In this document: positions 7,933 to 30,549 of the stretch, piece by piece | Position numbering within the stretch: the first letter of the stretch is position 1 | Layout of the letters: each line of letters starts with the position of its first letter | IMG/VR virus record: IMGVR_UViG_3300005289_000001 | Span: 1-30,782 of that record | Direction: 5' to 3' (one strand) | Source of the DNA: a virus | DNA: 30,782 nt | Position numbers and translations under genes: made by a program | The notes under the pieces: model-generated | Seen by the model: the letters and a program-made list of their open reading frames with translations, nothing else | Databases searched by the model: none | What the model was told of the DNA's origin: nothing

Positions 7933-8282
7933 TGTTCTTAGTTCCATTAAATTCAGACCCATTACAAACACAGAACTTCACTCATGAAGGTTATGACTTA
8001 ACCCTAACCACGAGATGGAACAGTGTTGTTGGATTCTGGAATATCGATTTATTTGATAATCTAAATCAGGTTTACTTAACTCAGGGTGAACCTCTTACTG
8101 TTGGCTCACCTACTGGCGTTCACCTTCAATTACCATTTGTTTTTGTACTTCTGGATGACTACGGTGTGGGAGAAGGGCCAATCAATATCAATGAGCTTGG
8201 CATTAGACTTAACGTTTATATTGTGGATAAGGACACATACAATGCAGCAATTCGGCAGAGCAATACAATTAGTTATCGGTAA
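7932..8282 (+). CDS. Baseplate plug protein (Pam3 gp18-like)
   Basis: This 116-residue protein starts MFLVPLNSDPLQTQNFTHEG and contains the typical LTTRWNSVVGFWNIDLFD followed by GEPLTVGSPTG. That pattern belongs to the small baseplate plug family known from phage Pam3. It should be all beta and sit between Dit-like ring and hub. The next gene starts 41 bp before its stop. Confidence 0.8.
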   Translation: MFLVPLNSDPLQTQNFTHEGYDLTLTTRWNSVVGFWNIDLFDNLNQVYLTQGEPLTVGSPTGVHLQLPFVFVLLDDYGVGEGPININELGIRLNVYIVDKDTYNAAIRQSNTISYR

Positions 8283-9081
8283 TGATAGAGAGTCGATTGT
8301 TATTGATGGTGGATTAACTATCTCATTTGATATAACCAAGACAATAACGGCCGAACCGAATGAGGCAACAATATCAGTTGTTAACCTTAGCCAATCAACC
8401 AGAAACTTAATTACAGAAAAGAAATACAACCGTATCTTGCTTAATGCAGGATATGGTGATGATTTGAGAACTCTTTTTGTTGGATACATTGATGATGTAA
8501 ATAACCGCAAGGAGGGCGTGGATACCACAACCGCAATGACCTGTACCGACGGTTCAATTGACTACAGAAACTCTCGAACTGCTAAAACTATTGCGGCTGG
8601 CTCAACCGATAAGGATATTGTTGGTGAAGTCCTTAAAGATATGCCGAATACAAAAGCAGGAACTCAAGAGCTTCCTAAAACGCAGCGATTGCCCCGTGGT
8701 AAGGTTTTAGTCGGAAATAGTAGAGATATATTAAAATCGGTTGCAAAGAATCAAAATGCAGATTGGAGCATTCAGGATGGCAAGCTTGTCATGTTGCCAA
8801 AGACCTCTGCACTTGCAAACAATGAAGGCTTCCTGATTGAAGAAAATACAGGCATGATTGGCAGCCCTCAAAAGACTAGTGATGGTCTTGAGGTTAGGTG
8901 CTACTTAAATAATATCTTGCGCGTAGGCCAGCTTGTTAGGGTTGTTTCTAGGCTTCAGGAATATTCTGGAGACTTTAAAATTAAACAACTTCAAATGAGA
9001 GGTAGCAATAAAGGTCAAGATTTTACGGCTATTCTTACATTACAAAACGGGGTTTACAATGAAGTAAATAAGAAGAAGTAA
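8242..9081 (+). CDS. Baseplate hub protein (gp27-like)
   Basis: I choose ATG 8242 (GGA 8 bases upstream), which gives 279 residues beginning MQQFGRAIQLVIGNDRESIV; the open frame upstream to 8086 is overlap with the plug gene. The order of strands, with AEPNEATISVVNLSQSTR, AGYGDDLRTLFVGYID and later IEENTGMIGSPQKTSDGLEV, fits hub proteins of the gp27/gpD group in small contractile phages. It should form the trimeric hub that holds the spike. The spike gene normally follows directly; here three foreign-looking genes intervene. Confidence 0.78.
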   Translation: MQQFGRAIQLVIGNDRESIVIDGGLTISFDITKTITAEPNEATISVVNLSQSTRNLITEKKYNRILLNAGYGDDLRTLFVGYIDDVNNRKEGVDTTTAMTCTDGSIDYRNSRTAKTIAAGSTDKDIVGEVLKDMPNTKAGTQELPKTQRLPRGKVLVGNSRDILKSVAKNQNADWSIQDGKLVMLPKTSALANNEGFLIEENTGMIGSPQKTSDGLEVRCYLNNILRVGQLVRVVSRLQEYSGDFKIKQLQMRGSNKGQDFTAILTLQNGVYNEVNKKK

Positions 9082-9082
9082 T

Positions 9083-9118
9083 TTTACTATTGCAAAAATA
9101 AACCAGTCATATTATGAT
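9083..9118 (+). promoter_or_regulatory. Promoter with candidate phage operator for the moron cassette
   Basis: The 14-mer TTTACTATTGCAAA (9083-9096) is the exact reverse complement of the sites at 23311 and 30514. It overlaps a -35 TTGCAA (9090-9095), followed by a 17-bp spacer and -10 TATGAT (9113-9118). The same arrangement drives early genes elsewhere in the window. Confidence 0.7.
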
Positions 9119-9146: not shown

Positions 9147-9557
9147 ATGGAAAACAAAGAAGTATTTTACTGCCCAACCGATGAGGATTCTTTTGAGGAT
9201 CTTGAAGATGCAATGGAATTTATTAAAGATGTTGCAACAAATAAGGATGATGCAATAGGCTGGGTTATTGAGGTTCATGAAAATTTAAAACCATCTCACA
9301 ATAGTTTTATTGATGGCTCTTCAATAATTGAATCTTTTGCAAATTCAGCTCATGATGAATTTGGTGAATACTCAGAATCTTATTTAGAGGATGTTTTTAT
9401 CAACGATGAAAAGTGCAAAGAGCTTGAAAATTTAATATCCGATTGGATGGATAAGAATGCAGAGCAACCCAAATTCTATCAATCAAAAGGTCAAGTTGGT
9501 GTGATTATTGTTGACCAAGACTTGTTAGACAAATATGAAATAGTTATTGAGGATTAA
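9147..9557 (+). CDS. Hypothetical acidic protein, first gene of moron cassette (136 aa)
   Basis: The product starts MENKEVFYCPTDEDSFEDL and is strongly acidic, with Asp/Glu clusters at 12-22, 101-106 and at the end. It carries one Cys and no signal peptide or membrane segment. I do not recognise a family. A TGAGGA ribosome-binding site lies 10 bases upstream. It begins a three-gene unit with its own promoter inside the baseplate block and is therefore unlikely to be a virion protein. The acidity would suit a DNA mimic or inhibitor, but nothing in the sequence proves that. Confidence 0.65.
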   Translation: MENKEVFYCPTDEDSFEDLEDAMEFIKDVATNKDDAIGWVIEVHENLKPSHNSFIDGSSIIESFANSAHDEFGEYSESYLEDVFINDEKCKELENLISDWMDKNAEQPKFYQSKGQVGVIIVDQDLLDKYEIVIED

Positions 9558-21316: not shown

Positions 21317-21559
21317 TTACCCTTCCAATAAATTCGCTTTAATCTTCATTAGTCTGTCGATTGTTTCATTCATATATCGAGTTCTAAATTGTTCAGAATA
21401 TTCATCACTCAACCACAATTGAATACTATCCGAGCCACGACCAACATACTGAACTTTCAACCAGCTAAAACTACGCTCAATAATGGTTTTTGAATTTGAT
21501 AATCCGATCAATTCAGATGCCAATGTTTCAATTTCTTTCTTTAATTCTTGCTCGCTCAC
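21317..21559 (-). CDS. Hypothetical protein upstream of recT (80 aa)
   Basis: GTG 21559 overlaps the stop of the lipoprotein gene (GTGA). The product begins MSEQELKKEIETLASELIGL, mostly helical, with a YVGRGSDSIQLWLSDEY middle and NETIDRLMKIKAN at the end. No family recognised. It lies 3 bp before the recT start and is certainly co-transcribed with it. Confidence 0.6.
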   Translation of the reverse strand: MSEQELKKEIETLASELIGLSNSKTIIERSFSWLKVQYVGRGSDSIQLWLSDEYSEQFRTRYMNETIDRLMKIKANLLEG

Positions 21560-21894
21560 TCTAGATTCTCCGCAACTTCTTTTTCAATTAAATTTACAAT
21601 GTTTGATACTTCTTCACTTGGCAAAACATATTTTTCTGTTTCACCATCCTCATTGAATACTTTTACATTTTTAACTTCATGAATTGTAAATTCATTCCAA
21701 GATGCATATCCATTTCCATCTTTAAAATACATAGGATCAAATTCAACTTCCAAAACCAAGTCTCCTGACTTAATTGCAGCTACATCATTTTTTAAGTCTA
21801 CCGACTCAATCTCATAAGGACCATGAATAACTGGTGTGTGATTTGTACACGCTATCATTGCTAAAGCTCCAACTAAAATCAATAATTTATTCAT
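21556..21894 (-). CDS. Predicted lipoprotein, first gene of the recombination operon (112 aa)
   Basis: The N-terminus MNKLLILVGALAMIACTNH is a signal peptide with lipobox MIAC (Cys16). The mature part is acidic and beta-rich (GPYEIESVDL, GDLVLEVEFDPMYF) and ends EKEVAENLE. A lipoprotein made early, as leader of a recombination operon, is unexpected; lipoproteins of phages with similar placement often block superinfection by acting on a receptor or DNA entry. That role is inference. It is preceded by a strong promoter and the candidate operator. Confidence 0.65.
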   Translation of the reverse strand: MNKLLILVGALAMIACTNHTPVIHGPYEIESVDLKNDVAAIKSGDLVLEVEFDPMYFKDGNGYASWNEFTIHEVKNVKVFNEDGETEKYVLPSEEVSNIVNLIEKEVAENLE

Positions 21895-21913: not shown

Positions 21914-21948
21914 TTTGCTATAGTAAAATAATAATTCAGAATTGTCAA
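21914..21948 (-). promoter_or_regulatory. Leftward early promoter with candidate operator
   Basis: On the minus strand: -35 TTGACA (21948-21943), 17-bp spacer, -10 TACTAT (21925-21920). The 14-mer TTTGCTATAGTAAA (21914-21927, + strand) covers the -10. It is the same sequence, in opposite orientation, as the site at 27787. Confidence 0.75.
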
Positions 21949-22198: not shown

Positions 22199-22272
22199 CT
22201 CAATCCACACCCTATACAGCAATTATTAATAAAAACTCTATACCCGCAACAAACCTTGCAAAAATCAGACAT
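22195..22272 (-). CDS. 25-residue Cys-rich, zinc-ribbon-like micropeptide
   Basis: MSDFCKVCCGYRVFINNCCI plus GCGLR: two C-x-x-C pairs (Cys5/Cys8 and Cys19/Cys22) separated by ten residues, each followed by or near Gly as in zinc knuckles of rubredoxin type. The ATG overlaps the 3' end of the HTH-coiled-coil gene and the TGA overlaps the next ATG, so the three are translationally coupled. The ribosome-binding site (GGTG, 5 bases) is weak. The size makes chance possible, but pattern and overlaps favour a gene. Confidence 0.5.
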   Translation of the reverse strand: MSDFCKVCCGYRVFINNCCIGCGLR

Positions 22273-23260
22273 ACCAACACCATAGAGCAGCAAGAATAAC
22301 AGATACAATCAAGAACCAATTCAATGATTTGGAAGTTGCATATGATGATTTAAGTGTATTAAATTCATATTTTAATGCACTGTAATTATAATTACCTTTG
22401 TTTAAATCCTGCTTCATGAATCCGATATCTCGCTTCAATTCATTAATACTTGAATCTTTTGCATTCAATAACTTAATGTCTTGATTGTGAATTTTTTCAG
22501 CCGCAATTAATTGATCGTCAAGTTTGTCAATTACAGCCTTCTGATTTTCATTCGTCTTCTGAAGATCTGTTACTTGCTTTGAATGATTGAATTTTAGCTT
22601 TTCAATTTCACCATTTAAGAATGCAACAGATGCCTTAAATTCTTTAATTTTGTTGGCCTTCTTAACAATTTCTTTCTTGCTATCGGAAAGTTTTGATTTA
22701 AGATTGTTTGATATTTCATTTGCATTTTCACGCAAAGCGTTTAACTCAGTATTAATTATTTCTTGAATTTCACTAGAATCAACATTAATTTTGATTTTAA
22801 CTTCATCTACAATTTTAGATTTATTATCATCTTGTAATAATGACAATGGTTTAAATTTTTCACGAGCAATTAAGGATTCAATTTCTTTAACCACACAAGC
22901 CTTAACCTTATCTGTTTGAGGAATTCGAAGCATCTTTCCAATATATTGACGCGACTTGCCAAGAGCTAAAGATAGATCACTATCATTCATTTTAAGCTCT
23001 GATTTTGCTTTGTTGATTAATTCAATCATTTTATTTTGCTTTCCGTATTTTGAAATAAATTCATCAAATGAATAAACAGGATATCCAACACAAGCCATAT
23101 TAAGATCACAATAAGTCCCATTCTCATAGGTTGTTACATAATCATCAACACCGCCAATAGTCATATTTCCCATTCGCGCAAATCCATTATTTTCTAAAAC
23201 TTCATAAATTTTAGGTTTTTGATTTACGGATGCTTTAATATACATTTCTTCATATTTCAT
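22265..23260 (-). CDS. HTH protein with long coiled coil and C-terminal membrane anchor (331 aa)
   Basis: Four parts can be read: an N-terminal globular region (1-75, with GFARMGNMTIGGVDDYVTTY); a helix-turn-helix region at about 78-115 (MNDSDLSLALGKSRQYIGKM); a long coiled coil from about 160 to 308, rich in Lys, Glu, Asn and Leu; and a terminal membrane helix at 313-331 (NWFLIVSVILAALWCWYV). It is divergent from a Cro-like gene and starts the leftward operon, the place of a CI repressor, yet it has no CI-like C-terminal domain. It may tether DNA to the membrane or act as an unusual regulator. I do not recognise the full-length family. GAGGAG precedes ATG 23260. Confidence 0.75.
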   Translation of the reverse strand: MKYEEMYIKASVNQKPKIYEVLENNGFARMGNMTIGGVDDYVTTYENGTYCDLNMACVGYPVYSFDEFISKYGKQNKMIELINKAKSELKMNDSDLSLALGKSRQYIGKMLRIPQTDKVKACVVKEIESLIAREKFKPLSLLQDDNKSKIVDEVKIKINVDSSEIQEIINTELNALRENANEISNNLKSKLSDSKKEIVKKANKIKEFKASVAFLNGEIEKLKFNHSKQVTDLQKTNENQKAVIDKLDDQLIAAEKIHNQDIKLLNAKDSSINELKRDIGFMKQDLNKGNYNYSALKYEFNTLKSSYATSKSLNWFLIVSVILAALWCWYV

Positions 23261-23310
23261 TTTTTTAAACTCCTCTTAAGGTAGAACCGATATTAAACTA
23301 ATTTAAAAAG

Positions 23311-23340
23311 TTTGCAATAGTAAATTTAATATTTTATCAT
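23311..23340 (+). promoter_or_regulatory. Divergent immunity-type control region with candidate operator
   Basis: Rightward: -35 TTGCAA (23312-23317), 17 bp, -10 TATCAT (23335-23340), upstream of the Cro-like gene. The 14-mer TTTGCAATAGTAAA (23311-23324) covers the -35. Because TTGCAA is self-complementary it can also serve as -35 for the leftward gene at 23260, though that -10 is unclear. Confidence 0.7.
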
Positions 23341-23362
23341 AGCTAAAACAAAGGAGGGTCTT

Positions 23363-23554
23363 ATGGACTGGAAAATTATCGTTTCTGAAGTTATGCAATA
23401 CAAAAAAATCAATCAAGGTGAGTTAGCAAAAAGAGTTGAGGCATCTGATACGTACATATCACACCTAAAGAATGGCAAGAGAGATTCACCATCTTTCGAT
23501 ATTGGACTAGCAATTGTTAAGCTCCACCCAAGAAAGAGAGAATTGCTAAAATAG
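23363..23554 (+). CDS. Cro-like HTH (XRE family) protein (63 aa)
   Basis: A single XRE-type HTH domain: MDWKIIVSEVMQYKKINQGE leads into LAKRVEASDTYISHLKNGKR, where helix 2 (GELAKRVE) and recognition helix 3 (SDTYISHLKNGK) are clear. At 63 residues it is the size of Cro proteins. It is divergent from the membrane-anchored HTH gene and follows AGGAGGG at good spacing. It is the best candidate to bind the repeated 14-bp operator. A terminator overlaps its stop codon. Confidence 0.8.
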   Translation: MDWKIIVSEVMQYKKINQGELAKRVEASDTYISHLKNGKRDSPSFDIGLAIVKLHPRKRELLK

Positions 23555-23587: not shown

Positions 23588-23623
23588 TTTGCTATTGCAA
23601 AATAAATAAAGTAGTGTCAGAAT
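23588..23623 (+). promoter_or_regulatory. Candidate operator and promoter of the small early genes
   Basis: TTTGCTATTGCAAA (23588-23601) is the most symmetric copy of the 14-mer. TTGCAA at 23595-23600 with CAGAAT 17 bp later (23618-23623) may form a weak promoter for the genes starting at 23649. Confidence 0.55.
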
Positions 23624-24832: not shown

Positions 24833-25015
24833 ATGCAAATACTTTCTGAAAACGTTACTTGTATTTCTGAATTAAAGAAAAACCCAAGCGCAGTAAAAGG
24901 CAATATTGATACTTGTGTGCTTAGTCACAATAAGCCTGCTTACTATACCGTAAATCCATCTCGTTATGAACAATTATTGAATGCTGAAAAAAAATTGAAG
25001 GAGTTGCAACAATGA
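24833..25015 (+). CDS. Phd/YefM-family antitoxin-like protein without toxin (60 aa)
   Basis: The sequence runs MQILSENVTCISELKKNPSA, then VLSHNKPAYYTVNPSRYEQL. I-S-E-L-K-K-N-P and the V-L-S-H-N-K-P-A-Y-Y segment are hallmarks of StbD/YafN-type Phd antitoxins: a DNA-binding dimer domain followed by a toxin-wrapping helix. No RelE, Doc or similar toxin is next to it; the following gene is Cys-containing and unrelated. It may autoregulate this promoter or counter a host toxin. GGAG precedes the ATG. Confidence 0.72.
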   Translation: MQILSENVTCISELKKNPSAVKGNIDTCVLSHNKPAYYTVNPSRYEQLLNAEKKLKELQQ

Positions 25016-25419
25016 AAACAAATGCAGAAAAGTCACTTAAATTAATTATTCAAATTGAAAAGCTAAACATCGAATACAAAAAATTATCTGAAAAAATTGC
25101 AGAACATGCTTATAAGTGTTGGGATTCAAAAATAGAAGTGAGCTCACCATTTTCAACAAATGTTTCGGCCTGTTTAACAGATTGGCTAGAGAAAAAATTT
25201 GAAATTGAATATTCAAACTGCCCTGTTACTGGTAGAGAGTATGAGCATAAAAGACCATATTATGTAGCGCCATTAATGACAGAGAAAGATTGTCCACACT
25301 GTTACGCTGCTTTACAGGTAATTAAAGAGCGCAAATTATTGAAACAAAAACGTGGTCGAATTAAGGCTCAAATCACAAAACTTGCTAAACGTGAAATTTT
25401 AAAGGAATTAAATCAATGA
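25012..25419 (+). CDS. Hypothetical protein with two Cys motifs (135 aa)
   Basis: Helical ends enclose a central part with NCPVTGREYEHKRPYY and DCPHCYAALQ. The N-terminal helix (KSLKLIIQIEKLNIEYKKLS) and the C-terminal basic helix are coiled-coil-like. Cys pairs could bind zinc. Common in phage early operons of this kind as far as I can judge, without known function. ATGA overlap upstream and a 4-bp overlap with the Rha/KilAC gene. Confidence 0.62.
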   Translation: MKTNAEKSLKLIIQIEKLNIEYKKLSEKIAEHAYKCWDSKIEVSSPFSTNVSACLTDWLEKKFEIEYSNCPVTGREYEHKRPYYVAPLMTEKDCPHCYAALQVIKERKLLKQKRGRIKAQITKLAKREILKELNQ

Positions 25420-26070
25420 ACCAATTAATAAATTCAAATGTTAAAACAATGTCTAGCCTTGAAATTGCTGGATTAACAATGAAACAGCACCAGCATGTTA
25501 AACGTGATATTGAAAACATGTGTGAGCAATTACAAATAGATGCGTCCAATTTTGGACACACCTATTTAGACTCAATGAACCGAAAACAAACTGCATATTT
25601 GCTTGATCAAGATACAACAATGTGTCTTGTATCTGGTTATTCTGCGCCGCTACGCATGGCAATTATTAAGCGATGGAAACAACTTGAAGAGGAATTTTAT
25701 ATACCTAAAACATATGGAGAGGCTTTGCAACTTTGCGCTGATCAAGCTAAACAATTAGAACTTGCAGCGCCAAAAATTGAATTTGTTGAAAAGTATGTTG
25801 AGAGTGTCGGCAACAAAGGATTTCGTGAATTAGCAAAACTTTTAAAAATCAAAGAGCCAAAGTTTAGAGATTTTCTAACCGACAACAAAATCATGTATCG
25901 ATTAAATGGAGCTTTAATGGGTTATGCCAATCATATTGATGCTGGGTCGTTTTCATGTATCCACAGGATTGAGTCAGTCTGGTCATGCTTTCAATCAGTG
26001 CTTATTCACGCCTAAAGGTGTTGAATGGATTGCTGCTGAATTGGCAAAAGAAAGTGTTCGGGGGAAATAA
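25416..26070 (+). CDS. Rha-KilAC phage regulatory protein/antirepressor, apparent frameshift
   Basis: Residues 10-95 form a Rha domain (MSSLEIAGLTMKQHQHVKRD; TTMCLVSGYSAPLRMAIIKR). From about 130 a KilAC antirepressor domain begins (GNKGFRELAKLLKIKEPKFR). As sequenced the frame ends at 26015 in an atypical tail. Removing one G from GGG at 25944-25946 continues as DAGRFHVSTGLSQSG and ends FTPKGVEWIAAELAKE, the canonical KilAC end, with a stop at 26068-26070 that overlaps the next ATG. Rha/KilAC proteins act in lysis-lysogeny control, often against a repressor. Confidence 0.8.
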
Positions 26071-27766: not shown

Positions 27767-27800
27767 TTGCAATGTTCTAAATTTAGTTTACTATAGCAAA
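27767..27800 (+). promoter_or_regulatory. Early promoter with candidate operator
   Basis: -35 TTGCAA (27767-27772), 16-bp spacer, -10 TACTAT (27789-27794). The 14-mer TTTACTATAGCAAA (27787-27800) covers the -10, as at 21914. A 6-bp inverted repeat ATGATC/GATCAT around 27715-27737 lies upstream without a T tract. Confidence 0.7.
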
Positions 27801-27821: not shown

Positions 27822-28043
27822 ATGAATATGAAAATAGAAATCAATGAATTTCAAACGATTGTAGCTATATCTAAAGAGCTTGATCGCCTTGGTTATAAGT
27901 TGGATTTAAGATATAAAAACCCAAGAGTTGTTATTACTTGGGGTCAAAGTAAAACTTACGATTATCAGTGCGCTTTAGATGTTGCAATGTTTAATCACAA
28001 AAGATACACAACACTTGATCAACTTAAGAAAATGGAGCGTTAA
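27822..28043 (+). CDS. Hypothetical protein of the second rightward early operon (73 aa)
   Basis: Starts MNMKIEINEFQTIVAISKEL; GAGGAG lies 8 bases before ATG 27822. A helix, then two strands (YKLDLRYKNPRVVITWGQ) and a final helix suggest a compact alpha/beta fold. No family recognised. The stop overlaps the next ATG (TAATG). Confidence 0.62.
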   Translation: MNMKIEINEFQTIVAISKELDRLGYKLDLRYKNPRVVITWGQSKTYDYQCALDVAMFNHKRYTTLDQLKKMER

Positions 28044-28801
28044 TGGTGAATATTCAGGAAAGAATTGATTTAATACGTGATTCAAGAATACAGGTCTTTA
28101 CTGGCGTGAAAGACAAGCAAGAGGCTAGGGATAAATTAAATAGTGAGATTGATGAATTTCTTGCAAAAGGTGGTGAAATAAATGAAGTTCCATTGGGCCA
28201 TACTGCTTTTGGTAAAGGTGGTTTAAGCGCCAAGGTTGCTGCTGGATGGGAGCGATCACCAAATGCAATTGAGATTCATGAGACTTCAAATGAGGATATT
28301 TTGGAAAGAAATAAATCTATTTCAAAAAAACCATTTAAAGTTAAAACAGAAAGATCAAGTAGTAATAATGCAACAAAGCAGATTATACAATCGAGAAATC
28401 TAAAGCAAATTATTGCTAAATTTGGCAATGGAGATAGAAAACGATTCTGTGATTTGGTTGGTGTTTCGGTTCCAAGTTTTAATAATGTTGCACGTATGGA
28501 TGCTGTATTTTCTGATGAAAGCTTTGATAGAGTTTTATTGGTTCTTGAAACTTTTGAGTTTACGCCAAGAGTTAAAAAACCAAAATACACCAAATCAACT
28601 AATCCAGACCATCTAAGACGAACATCAGTTATTGAGGCTAGAAAGAAGGCTATTATTGATGGTAAATCTGAGTTTATGGCTGAGTGCTCAAATCATGGCA
28701 TGACAAGATATGTTTTTGAGGGTAAGTATGGTGGTAGATGTTGCGCTTGCCGTAAAGAGCAAAACTTAAAATATCGCAAAAAATTGAAAGGTGAGCTATG
28801 A
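28043..28801 (+). CDS. Putative regulatory protein with Cys-rich C-terminus (252 aa)
   Basis: The N-terminal part has the segment EIDEFLAKGGEINEVPLGHT, a short motif widespread in small phage/plasmid regulators (F-x-x-x-G-G-x-I-x-x-x-P). Residues 117-175 resemble an HTH (FGNGDRKRFCDLVGVSVPSF). The C-terminus carries ECSNHGMTRYVF and CCACRKEQN, a likely zinc site common in DNA-binding phage proteins, and a basic tail. It may be a transcription regulator or antiterminator; no firm family. GGAG precedes the ATG. Confidence 0.62.
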   Translation: MVNIQERIDLIRDSRIQVFTGVKDKQEARDKLNSEIDEFLAKGGEINEVPLGHTAFGKGGLSAKVAAGWERSPNAIEIHETSNEDILERNKSISKKPFKVKTERSSSNNATKQIIQSRNLKQIIAKFGNGDRKRFCDLVGVSVPSFNNVARMDAVFSDESFDRVLLVLETFEFTPRVKKPKYTKSTNPDHLRRTSVIEARKKAIIDGKSEFMAECSNHGMTRYVFEGKYGGRCCACRKEQNLKYRKKLKGEL

Positions 28802-30154: not shown

Positions 30155-30172
30155 TTGTATTTTTGTTAATAT
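30145..30172 (+). promoter_or_regulatory. Possible promoter of the structured RNA
   Basis: TTGCAA (30145-30150) and TAATAT (30167-30172) with 16 bp between, spanning the end of the nuclease gene. Transcription would start near 30180, at the first hairpin of the putative RNA. No 14-bp operator here. Confidence 0.4.
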
Positions 30173-30179
30173 TGTTTTT

Positions 30180-30503
30180 GTGGAATACGCACCACAGTGT
30201 AAACAAATGACTGCCAAGAAAGTTTGGTATGGTTTAATTAATTGTATATAGCTTGGGGCATGCAATCCCGATTGATGTTAATTAAGCTTGGCATACGCAG
30301 TGCCTGACCGCCTGAAAGTAGGCAATTTAGAGAAGTGAATAAAAGCATGATAGACATGTGGAGGATTGGATACTGTCCGTGGGAGGTCGTCCACTTTGCC
30401 GAAACCCAACTCTGCCGATACATGAACAATGACACTTGTAGAAGTAGCGTAGTTGTTCACTTCATTTAAGTTTACTCCTCTGCCTCCTTCGGGAGGTTTT
30501 TTT
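30180..30503 (+). ncRNA. Candidate structured non-coding RNA, about 320 nt
   Basis: About 320 bases without a convincing gene, visibly richer in G+C than the flanks, bounded by a possible promoter and a strong terminator. Complementary segments that I can see: GTGG/CCAC (30180/30192), TTAATTAA/TTAATTAA (30234/30278), GGCA/TGCC (30290/30301), GCCT/AGGC (30310/30320), a long-range GAAGTGAA/TTCACTTC (30332/30456), and inside it GTGGA/TCCAC (30358/30390), GGA/TCC (30368/30376) and ACTT/AAGT (30434/30442). It matches no RNA family I know; it is not tRNA, tmRNA, RNase P or 6S-like. A 40-codon frame (30347-30469) overlaps it. Confidence 0.5.
30483..30503 (+). terminator. Rho-independent terminator
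   Basis: CCTCC / GGAGG with a TTCG tetraloop and seven T: a strong rightward terminator at the end of the putative RNA. Confidence 0.9.
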
Positions 30504-30513
30504 GCTTAAAATA

Positions 30514-30549
30514 TTTGCAATAGTAAAATAATTAAGTTACTATAGTTAA
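30514..30549 (+). promoter_or_regulatory. Early promoter with two candidate operator sites
   Basis: -35 TTGCAA (30515-30520), 17-bp spacer, -10 TACTAT (30538-30543). TTTGCAATAGTAAA (30514-30527), identical to the 23311 site, covers the -35. A second, weaker copy GTTACTATAGTTAA (30536-30549) covers the -10. The only promoter here with two sites. Confidence 0.72.

What the first reader, a model, noticed from the sequence alone, without database searches (positions are those of the whole stretch)
22265..23260. Helix-turn-helix protein with a 150-residue coiled coil and a C-terminal membrane anchor in the repressor position
The gene is divergent from a Cro-like gene, where a temperate phage keeps its repressor. 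The product has a plausible HTH (about 78-115) but no repressor-type cleavage or dimer domain. Instead it has a very long coiled coil and a single membrane helix at the extreme C-terminus. That would hold the DNA-binding part some 20 nm from the inner membrane. It might link phage DNA to the membrane, sense membrane state, or act as partition factor. Residue patterns are seen; function is inference.
Basis: partly seen in the sequence, partly recalled or inferred. Interest (0 to 1): 0.78.

Follow-up and report, generated by a model that had tools for sequence, protein, structure and literature searches.

The report
Membrane-anchored phage repressor-like protein
A group of Acinetobacter viruses carries, where a lambda-type phage keeps its repressor, a DNA-binding protein on a long coiled stalk with its tail anchored in the cell membrane, and the same genomes hold about seven matching control sites over promoters, so these supposedly purely lytic phages may run a repressor circuit from the membrane.

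Summary
The minus-strand gene 22265-23260 encodes 331 residues: a small alpha/beta domain (1-73), a lambda-repressor-like HTH (76-135), a flexible linker, a ~150-residue helix with heptad periodicity, and one C-terminal membrane helix (313-331). The window is an integrase-less Acinetobacter myophage related to Obolenskvirus. All relatives read in full share the order HTH, coil, membrane helix (one is cut off at its contig end); 76 public phage records match the N-terminal part and 75 match the membrane tail. Within Obolenskvirus the HTH and membrane helix are under strong purifying selection; the N-terminal domain is swapped freely. New here: a multi-site operator set. The window phage has seven exact copies of a 14-bp near-palindrome (0.01 expected), six in the window, all between genes, several over promoters. 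Syntenic copies that could be aligned in a second phage carry a concerted base change, and Obolenskvirus genomes carry 4-7 copies of a third variant. The variant tracks the anchored protein's recognition helix better than that of the neighbouring Cro. Best reading: a tail-anchored operator-binding repressor. DNA binding and membrane localisation are untested. 'Temperate phage' and 'partition factor' are not supported.

The parts
22265..23260 (-). Gene for the 331-aa membrane-anchored HTH protein (phrog_14474 family, annotated 'transcriptional regulator' in Obolenskvirus)
23042..23260 (-). Residues 1-73: small alpha/beta domain, highly variable among homologues (30% mean identity within Obolenskvirus)
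   Evidence: resembles small stand-alone phage proteins
22856..23035 (-). Residues 76-135: lambda-repressor-like helix-turn-helix; recognition segment GKSRQYIGKML
   Evidence: AlphaFold; VIA-align Z 7.5; pN/pS 0.16 within Obolenskvirus
22778..22849 (-). Residues 138-161: flexible linker, low confidence
   Evidence: pLDDT < 50 at 138-160
22331..22777 (-). Residues 162-310: long helix with heptad periodicity, probable coiled coil
22268..22324 (-). Residues 313-331: C-terminal membrane helix, no tail after it (probable tail anchor, N-terminus in cytoplasm)
   Evidence: tail conserved in 75 phage records; pN/pS 0.05 within Obolenskvirus
23261..23362 (.). Divergent control region; palindromic TTGCAA (23312-23317) can serve as -35 of both promoters; conserved in Obolenskvirus
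23311..23324 (+). Operator TTTGCAATAGTAAA at the cro promoter
23290..23303 (+). Degenerate operator-like site at the gene's own promoter (better preserved in L017 and Obolenskvirus)
23588..23601 (-). Operator TTTGCAATAGCAAA after cro
27787..27800 (-). Operator over the -10 of a promoter ahead of the 73-aa gene at 27822
30514..30527 (+). Operator ahead of the small ORF at about 30570
21914..21927 (+). Operator over the -10 of the promoter (TTGACA-17-TACTAT) of the lipoprotein-like gene 21556-21894
9083..9096 (-). Operator between ORFs 8086-9081 and 9147-9557
23363..23554 (+). Cro-like HTH protein, 63 aa
25416..26015 (+). pRha/ANT antirepressor-like gene; antirepressors are annotated in several relatives

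Best explanation
A tail-anchored, lambda-repressor-like transcriptional repressor occupying the CI position of Obolenskvirus-type phages. The HTH dimer, paired by the coiled-coil stalk, binds a 14-bp near-palindrome (TTTGCWATAGYAAA here) at about seven places in the phage genome; many sites overlap a promoter -10 or -35, so binding would block RNA polymerase. The C-terminal helix holds the protein in the inner membrane with the HTH about 20 nm away in the cytoplasm, so bound phage DNA would be held near the membrane. The swapped N-terminal domain is the likely input or antirepressor-contact module. Shown: architecture (by prediction), its conservation, selection, and the operator set. Inferred: that this protein rather than Cro reads the operators, that it represses, that it is in the membrane, and what the N-domain does.
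For: Gene position and fold. Same layout in relatives and tail in 75 records. Within Obolenskvirus pN/pS is 0.16 for the HTH and 0.05 for the membrane segment. Seven exact operator copies in the 41-kb record versus 0.01 expected, all outside credible genes. In the L017 phage, the syntenic copies that aligned carry TTTGC to TTCGC or its mirror. Obolenskvirus genomes carry 4-7 exact TTTACTATTGAGAAT each; the window has none and L017 one near-match, and in the three annotated ones every copy lies between annotated genes. The operator class follows the anchored protein's helix (RPYIAKMLN versus RQYIGKMLR), while two Cro types (STAYIQWLREG and STVHIHGLATG) share the same operator. Many sites sit as -10 TACTAT with a -35 16-17 nt upstream and a start codon 33-36 nt downstream.
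Against: Window and L017 proteins have the same recognition helix (GKSRQYIGKML) but their operators differ in concert by one base; their Cro helices differ, so Cro may read that base or the sites. The Obolenskvirus genomes are closely related, so helix-operator agreement among them is not independent evidence: in effect one class change. TTTACTAT includes a -10 box, so part of the conservation may be promoter conservation. Some copies have no good -35. No integrase or ParA gives a reason for lasting repression. No experiment shows DNA binding or membrane insertion.
Confidence: 0.55

Rival explanations
1. DNA-membrane tether for replication or genome organisation: the HTH binds phage DNA and the anchor brings it to the inner membrane, as phi29 p16.7 does; any transcriptional effect is secondary.
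For: The membrane helix is the most constrained part within Obolenskvirus, and stalk length varies, as for a spacer. p16.7 is a precedent for a membrane protein that recruits phage DNA (PMC4974454). Operators are spread over the genome.
Against: Sites sit on promoters rather than clustering at an origin; the gene lies in the repressor position and shares its control region with cro.
Confidence: 0.22
2. The Cro-like protein, or another phage DNA-binding protein (for example the SutA-domain protein at 28043), reads the operators; the anchored protein has a separate role such as sensing superinfection, with its DNA target unknown.
For: The concerted one-base change between window and L017 goes with a change in the Cro recognition helix and none in the anchored protein's.
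Against: Two very different Cro recognition helices go with one identical operator within Obolenskvirus; the larger operator class change goes with the anchored protein's helix.
Confidence: 0.2
3. Evolutionary relic: a former lysogeny repressor retained without function after loss of the integrase.
For: Relatives are called strictly virulent and possibly derived from temperate ancestors (PMC10888812).
Against: Strong purifying selection on HTH and membrane helix within Obolenskvirus and retention in about 75 genomes, with operators intact.
Confidence: 0.03

Closest known systems
Obolenskvirus 'transcriptional regulator' family (phrog_14474; e.g. WCHABP12 gp29, Scipio gp52, AP22 I2GUH5)
   Same: Homologous: same HTH, stalk and C-terminal membrane helix, same divergent position next to cro
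   Different: Window protein has a longer stalk (331 versus about 253-297 aa for most), a different N-domain and membrane-helix sequence, and a different operator variant; the anchor and operators are not mentioned in the Obolenskvirus paper searched
Lambda-type CI repressors
   Same: HTH fold, position divergent from cro, near-palindromic operators over promoters
   Different: No S24 cleavage or oligomerisation domain; coiled coil and membrane anchor instead; no integrase in the phage
KfrA-type plasmid proteins (R751, RA3)
   Same: N-terminal DNA-binding head plus long coiled-coil tail; transcriptional autoregulators (PMC7821693)
   Different: Plasmid-borne, no membrane anchor reported in the passages read, no Pfam KfrA match here
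phi29 p16.7
   Same: Phage membrane protein that recruits phage DNA (PMC4974454)
   Different: Reversed order (N-terminal anchor, C-terminal DNA-binding domain; from general knowledge); works in replication, binding ssDNA and terminal protein
ToxR/CadC membrane-bound regulators
   Same: Cytoplasmic DNA-binding domain joined to one membrane helix
   Different: Those have winged helices and a periplasmic sensor domain (general knowledge); here only a few residues at most follow the membrane helix

Membership tests
phrog_14474 (Obolenskvirus transcriptional regulator) | Sequence match to the family profile | tested here: met
   E = 1e-24, residues 1-174
phrog_14474 (Obolenskvirus transcriptional regulator) | HTH, stalk, C-terminal membrane helix as in the relatives read | tested here: met
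   tail in 75 phage records
Lambda-repressor-like (Xre) HTH fold | Helical fold of the HTH domain | tested here: met
   VIA-align Z 7.5, 64 residues, rmsd 2.4 A, on POU-specific domains; other lambda-repressor-like HTH at Z 5-6; Foldseek E only 0.28 or worse
Lambda-repressor-like (Xre) HTH fold | Pfam HTH model above cut-off | tested here: not met
   best is HTH_ParB E 0.017, below cut-off
Lambda-type CI repressor | C-terminal S24/dimerisation domain | tested here: not met
   C-terminal half is one helix; no PF00717 in the phage record
Lambda-type CI repressor | Divergent from cro with operators over both promoters | tested here: met
   own-promoter site degenerate in the window; which protein binds is inferred
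Lambda-type CI repressor | Phage with integration functions | tested here: not met
   no PF00589 or PF00239 in the 41-kb record, which may be incomplete
ParB partition protein | Partner ParA ATPase | tested here: not met
   no PF13614 in the record; record may be incomplete
KfrA | KfrA head-domain sequence | tested here: inconclusive
   no KfrA family among Pfam matches to E 1; not tested by structure
phi29 p16.7-like tether | Binding of phage DNA at the membrane | not testable with these tools
   needs experiment
ToxR/CadC one-component regulator | Periplasmic sensor domain after the membrane helix | tested here: not met
   no residues follow in the window, about 3-7 in Obolenskvirus

The most novel reading that the evidence does not exclude
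A membrane-anchored phage repressor that binds about seven dispersed operators, so that repression and attachment of the phage genome to the inner membrane are one act, with a swappable N-terminal domain setting the signal that releases it, kept in phages thought to be strictly lytic.
Probability: 0.35. Interest if true: 0.85.

Novelty: new variant of a known kind. Interest (0 to 1): 0.62.

Why it matters
Phage repressors are normally soluble; a repressor built onto a stalk and a membrane anchor would join gene control to membrane state or DNA position. The finding also bears on use: Obolenskvirus phages are studied as therapeutic candidates, and one was reported to carry no repressor (PMC13377704), yet the Obolenskvirus genomes scanned keep a conserved repressor-like protein and an intact-looking operator set. 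The operators make the question directly testable.

Tried and rejected
Prophage and plasmid homologues: none in GTDB genomes by HTH or Cro peptide patterns (pattern-based, so distant relatives could be missed) and none in plasmids. Solved structures by sequence: nothing convincing. First thought that the operator reader could be settled by the conserved control region alone; the concerted base change between window and L017 argued for Cro, then the Obolenskvirus comparison argued back for the anchored protein, so it stays open. The idea that the 73-aa protein at 27822 is a free copy of the N-domain: no support. Pattern hits L030 and L039-L041 were chance matches inside a coding region, and L044 was unrelated. 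Searches for papers on membrane-bound phage repressors returned nothing relevant; these cover open-access text only. No Rfam match in the window.

Full report
What is there. The ORF 22265-23260 on the minus strand encodes 331 residues and faces a 63-residue Cro-like gene at 23363-23554 across 102 bp. AlphaFold gives a small alpha/beta domain (1-73), an HTH of four helices (77-135), a flexible stretch (138-160) and one helix from 162 to 330; residues 1-137 alone fold with mean pLDDT 86. The HTH part aligns with lambda-repressor-like and POU-specific domains, Z up to 7.5 over 64 residues, which is a middling score, and Foldseek's own E-values are not significant. The helix shows 3.5-residue periodicity beyond 99.95% of shuffles, and the last 19 residues are the only strong hydrophobic stretch. 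A dedicated coiled-coil or TM predictor was not available.

Where it comes from. The window is part of a 41,417-base virus record with an Acinetobacter Obolenskvirus-like layout. Residues 1-139 match 76 phage records, all Acinetobacter. The full products of relatives, 188-297 aa as read (some start sites are uncertain), end in a stalk and a membrane helix preceded by basic residues, which suggests a cytoplasmic N-terminus; one relative (L017) is cut off at its contig end inside the membrane helix. The tail itself is found in 75 records. The protein is annotated 'transcriptional regulator'; a search of the Brutus and Scipio paper for transmembrane, coiled, operator and gp52 found no mention of the anchor or operators.

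Selection. Within Obolenskvirus the HTH (90% mean identity, pN/pS 0.16) and membrane segment (97%, 0.05) are strongly constrained, the stalk less so (73%, 0.43), and the N-domain is near saturation (30%), consistent with exchange of modules. Between the window and Obolenskvirus the distances are large (pN/pS 0.5-0.9, near saturation), so no claim of constraint is made there.

The operator set. The control region is conserved between the window and the relatives, with a palindromic TTGCAA that can serve both promoters. Extending from it, the 14-mer TTTGCWATAGYAAA occurs exactly seven times in the 41-kb record (positions 9083, 21914, 23311, 23588, 27787, 30514, 38034) against 0.01 expected in second-order Markov simulations. 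All lie between credible genes; the site at 38034 touches only the upstream end of a TTG-started ORF whose likelier start lies further in. The pattern was chosen after seeing several copies, so the expectation is optimistic, but a looser pattern also gives 15 strand hits versus 0.57. In a second phage (L017) the syntenic copies that could be aligned carry the same base change, TTTGC to TTCGC or its mirror; the site at 9083 did not align in the stretches fetched and 30514 aligned only loosely. Obolenskvirus genomes carry a third form, TTTACTATTGAGAAT, in 4-7 exact copies per genome checked, with none in the window and one near-match in L017. In the three annotated genomes examined every copy lies between annotated genes. 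Several copies have TACTAT as -10 with TTGACA, TTGCAA or TTGCAT 16-17 nt upstream and a start codon 33-36 nt downstream; others, such as the site after cro, lack a good -35.

Who reads them. Obolenskvirus proteins share one recognition helix (SRPYIAKMLN) and one operator form, although their Cro proteins come in two quite different types. Window and L017 share another helix (SRQYIGKMLR) and related operator forms. This favours the anchored protein as reader. Against it, the one-base difference between window and L017 has no counterpart in the anchored protein's recognition helix, whereas their Cro helices differ. The Obolenskvirus genomes are close kin, so this is in effect one class change. 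In lambda both proteins read the same sites (general knowledge), and that is possible here.

Mechanism. I judge a membrane-anchored repressor most likely (0.55): the HTH dimer sits on operators over promoters, the stalk sets reach and pairing, the anchor holds protein and bound DNA at the membrane, and the variable N-domain is the input or antirepressor contact. An antirepressor-like gene is present in the window (25416-26015) and annotated in several relatives. A DNA-membrane tether in the manner of phi29 p16.7 and a Cro-read operator set are the main rivals. A partition role is unlikely without ParA, and an integrated lysogenic state is not supported without a recombinase; the record may, however, be incomplete.

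Novelty. The parts are known kinds; the combination of CI position, stalk, tail anchor and a multi-site operator set was not found described in the open literature searched. Rated a new variant of a known kind.

Noticed in passing
window 28043-28801 (+): 252-aa protein with a SutA RNA-polymerase-binding segment at residues 24-53 (Pfam E 3e-10, above cut-off): a phage protein that may bind host RNA polymerase, and a possible rival reader or partner for the promoters.
   Followed up: no
window 21556-21894 (-): Lipoprotein-like small protein (weak match to the Cor superinfection exclusion family, E 0.036) under a consensus promoter TTGACA-17-TACTAT overlapped by the operator.
   Followed up: partly
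window 30155-30513: About 360 bases without a convincing gene ahead of the operator at 30514; no Rfam match.
   Followed up: partly
window 24833-25015 (+): 60-aa antitoxin-like protein (phrog_2268, E 1e-9); no toxin partner was identified.
   Followed up: no
L048 27843-28430 (phage LZ35): An HNH endonuclease gene sits beside cro on the opposite strand in some relatives, so this control region may be a target of homing-type insertions.
   Followed up: no
L045, within ORF 750-1094 (G000 just past the window end): A short run of unknown bases (X residues in the translated ORF).
   Followed up: no
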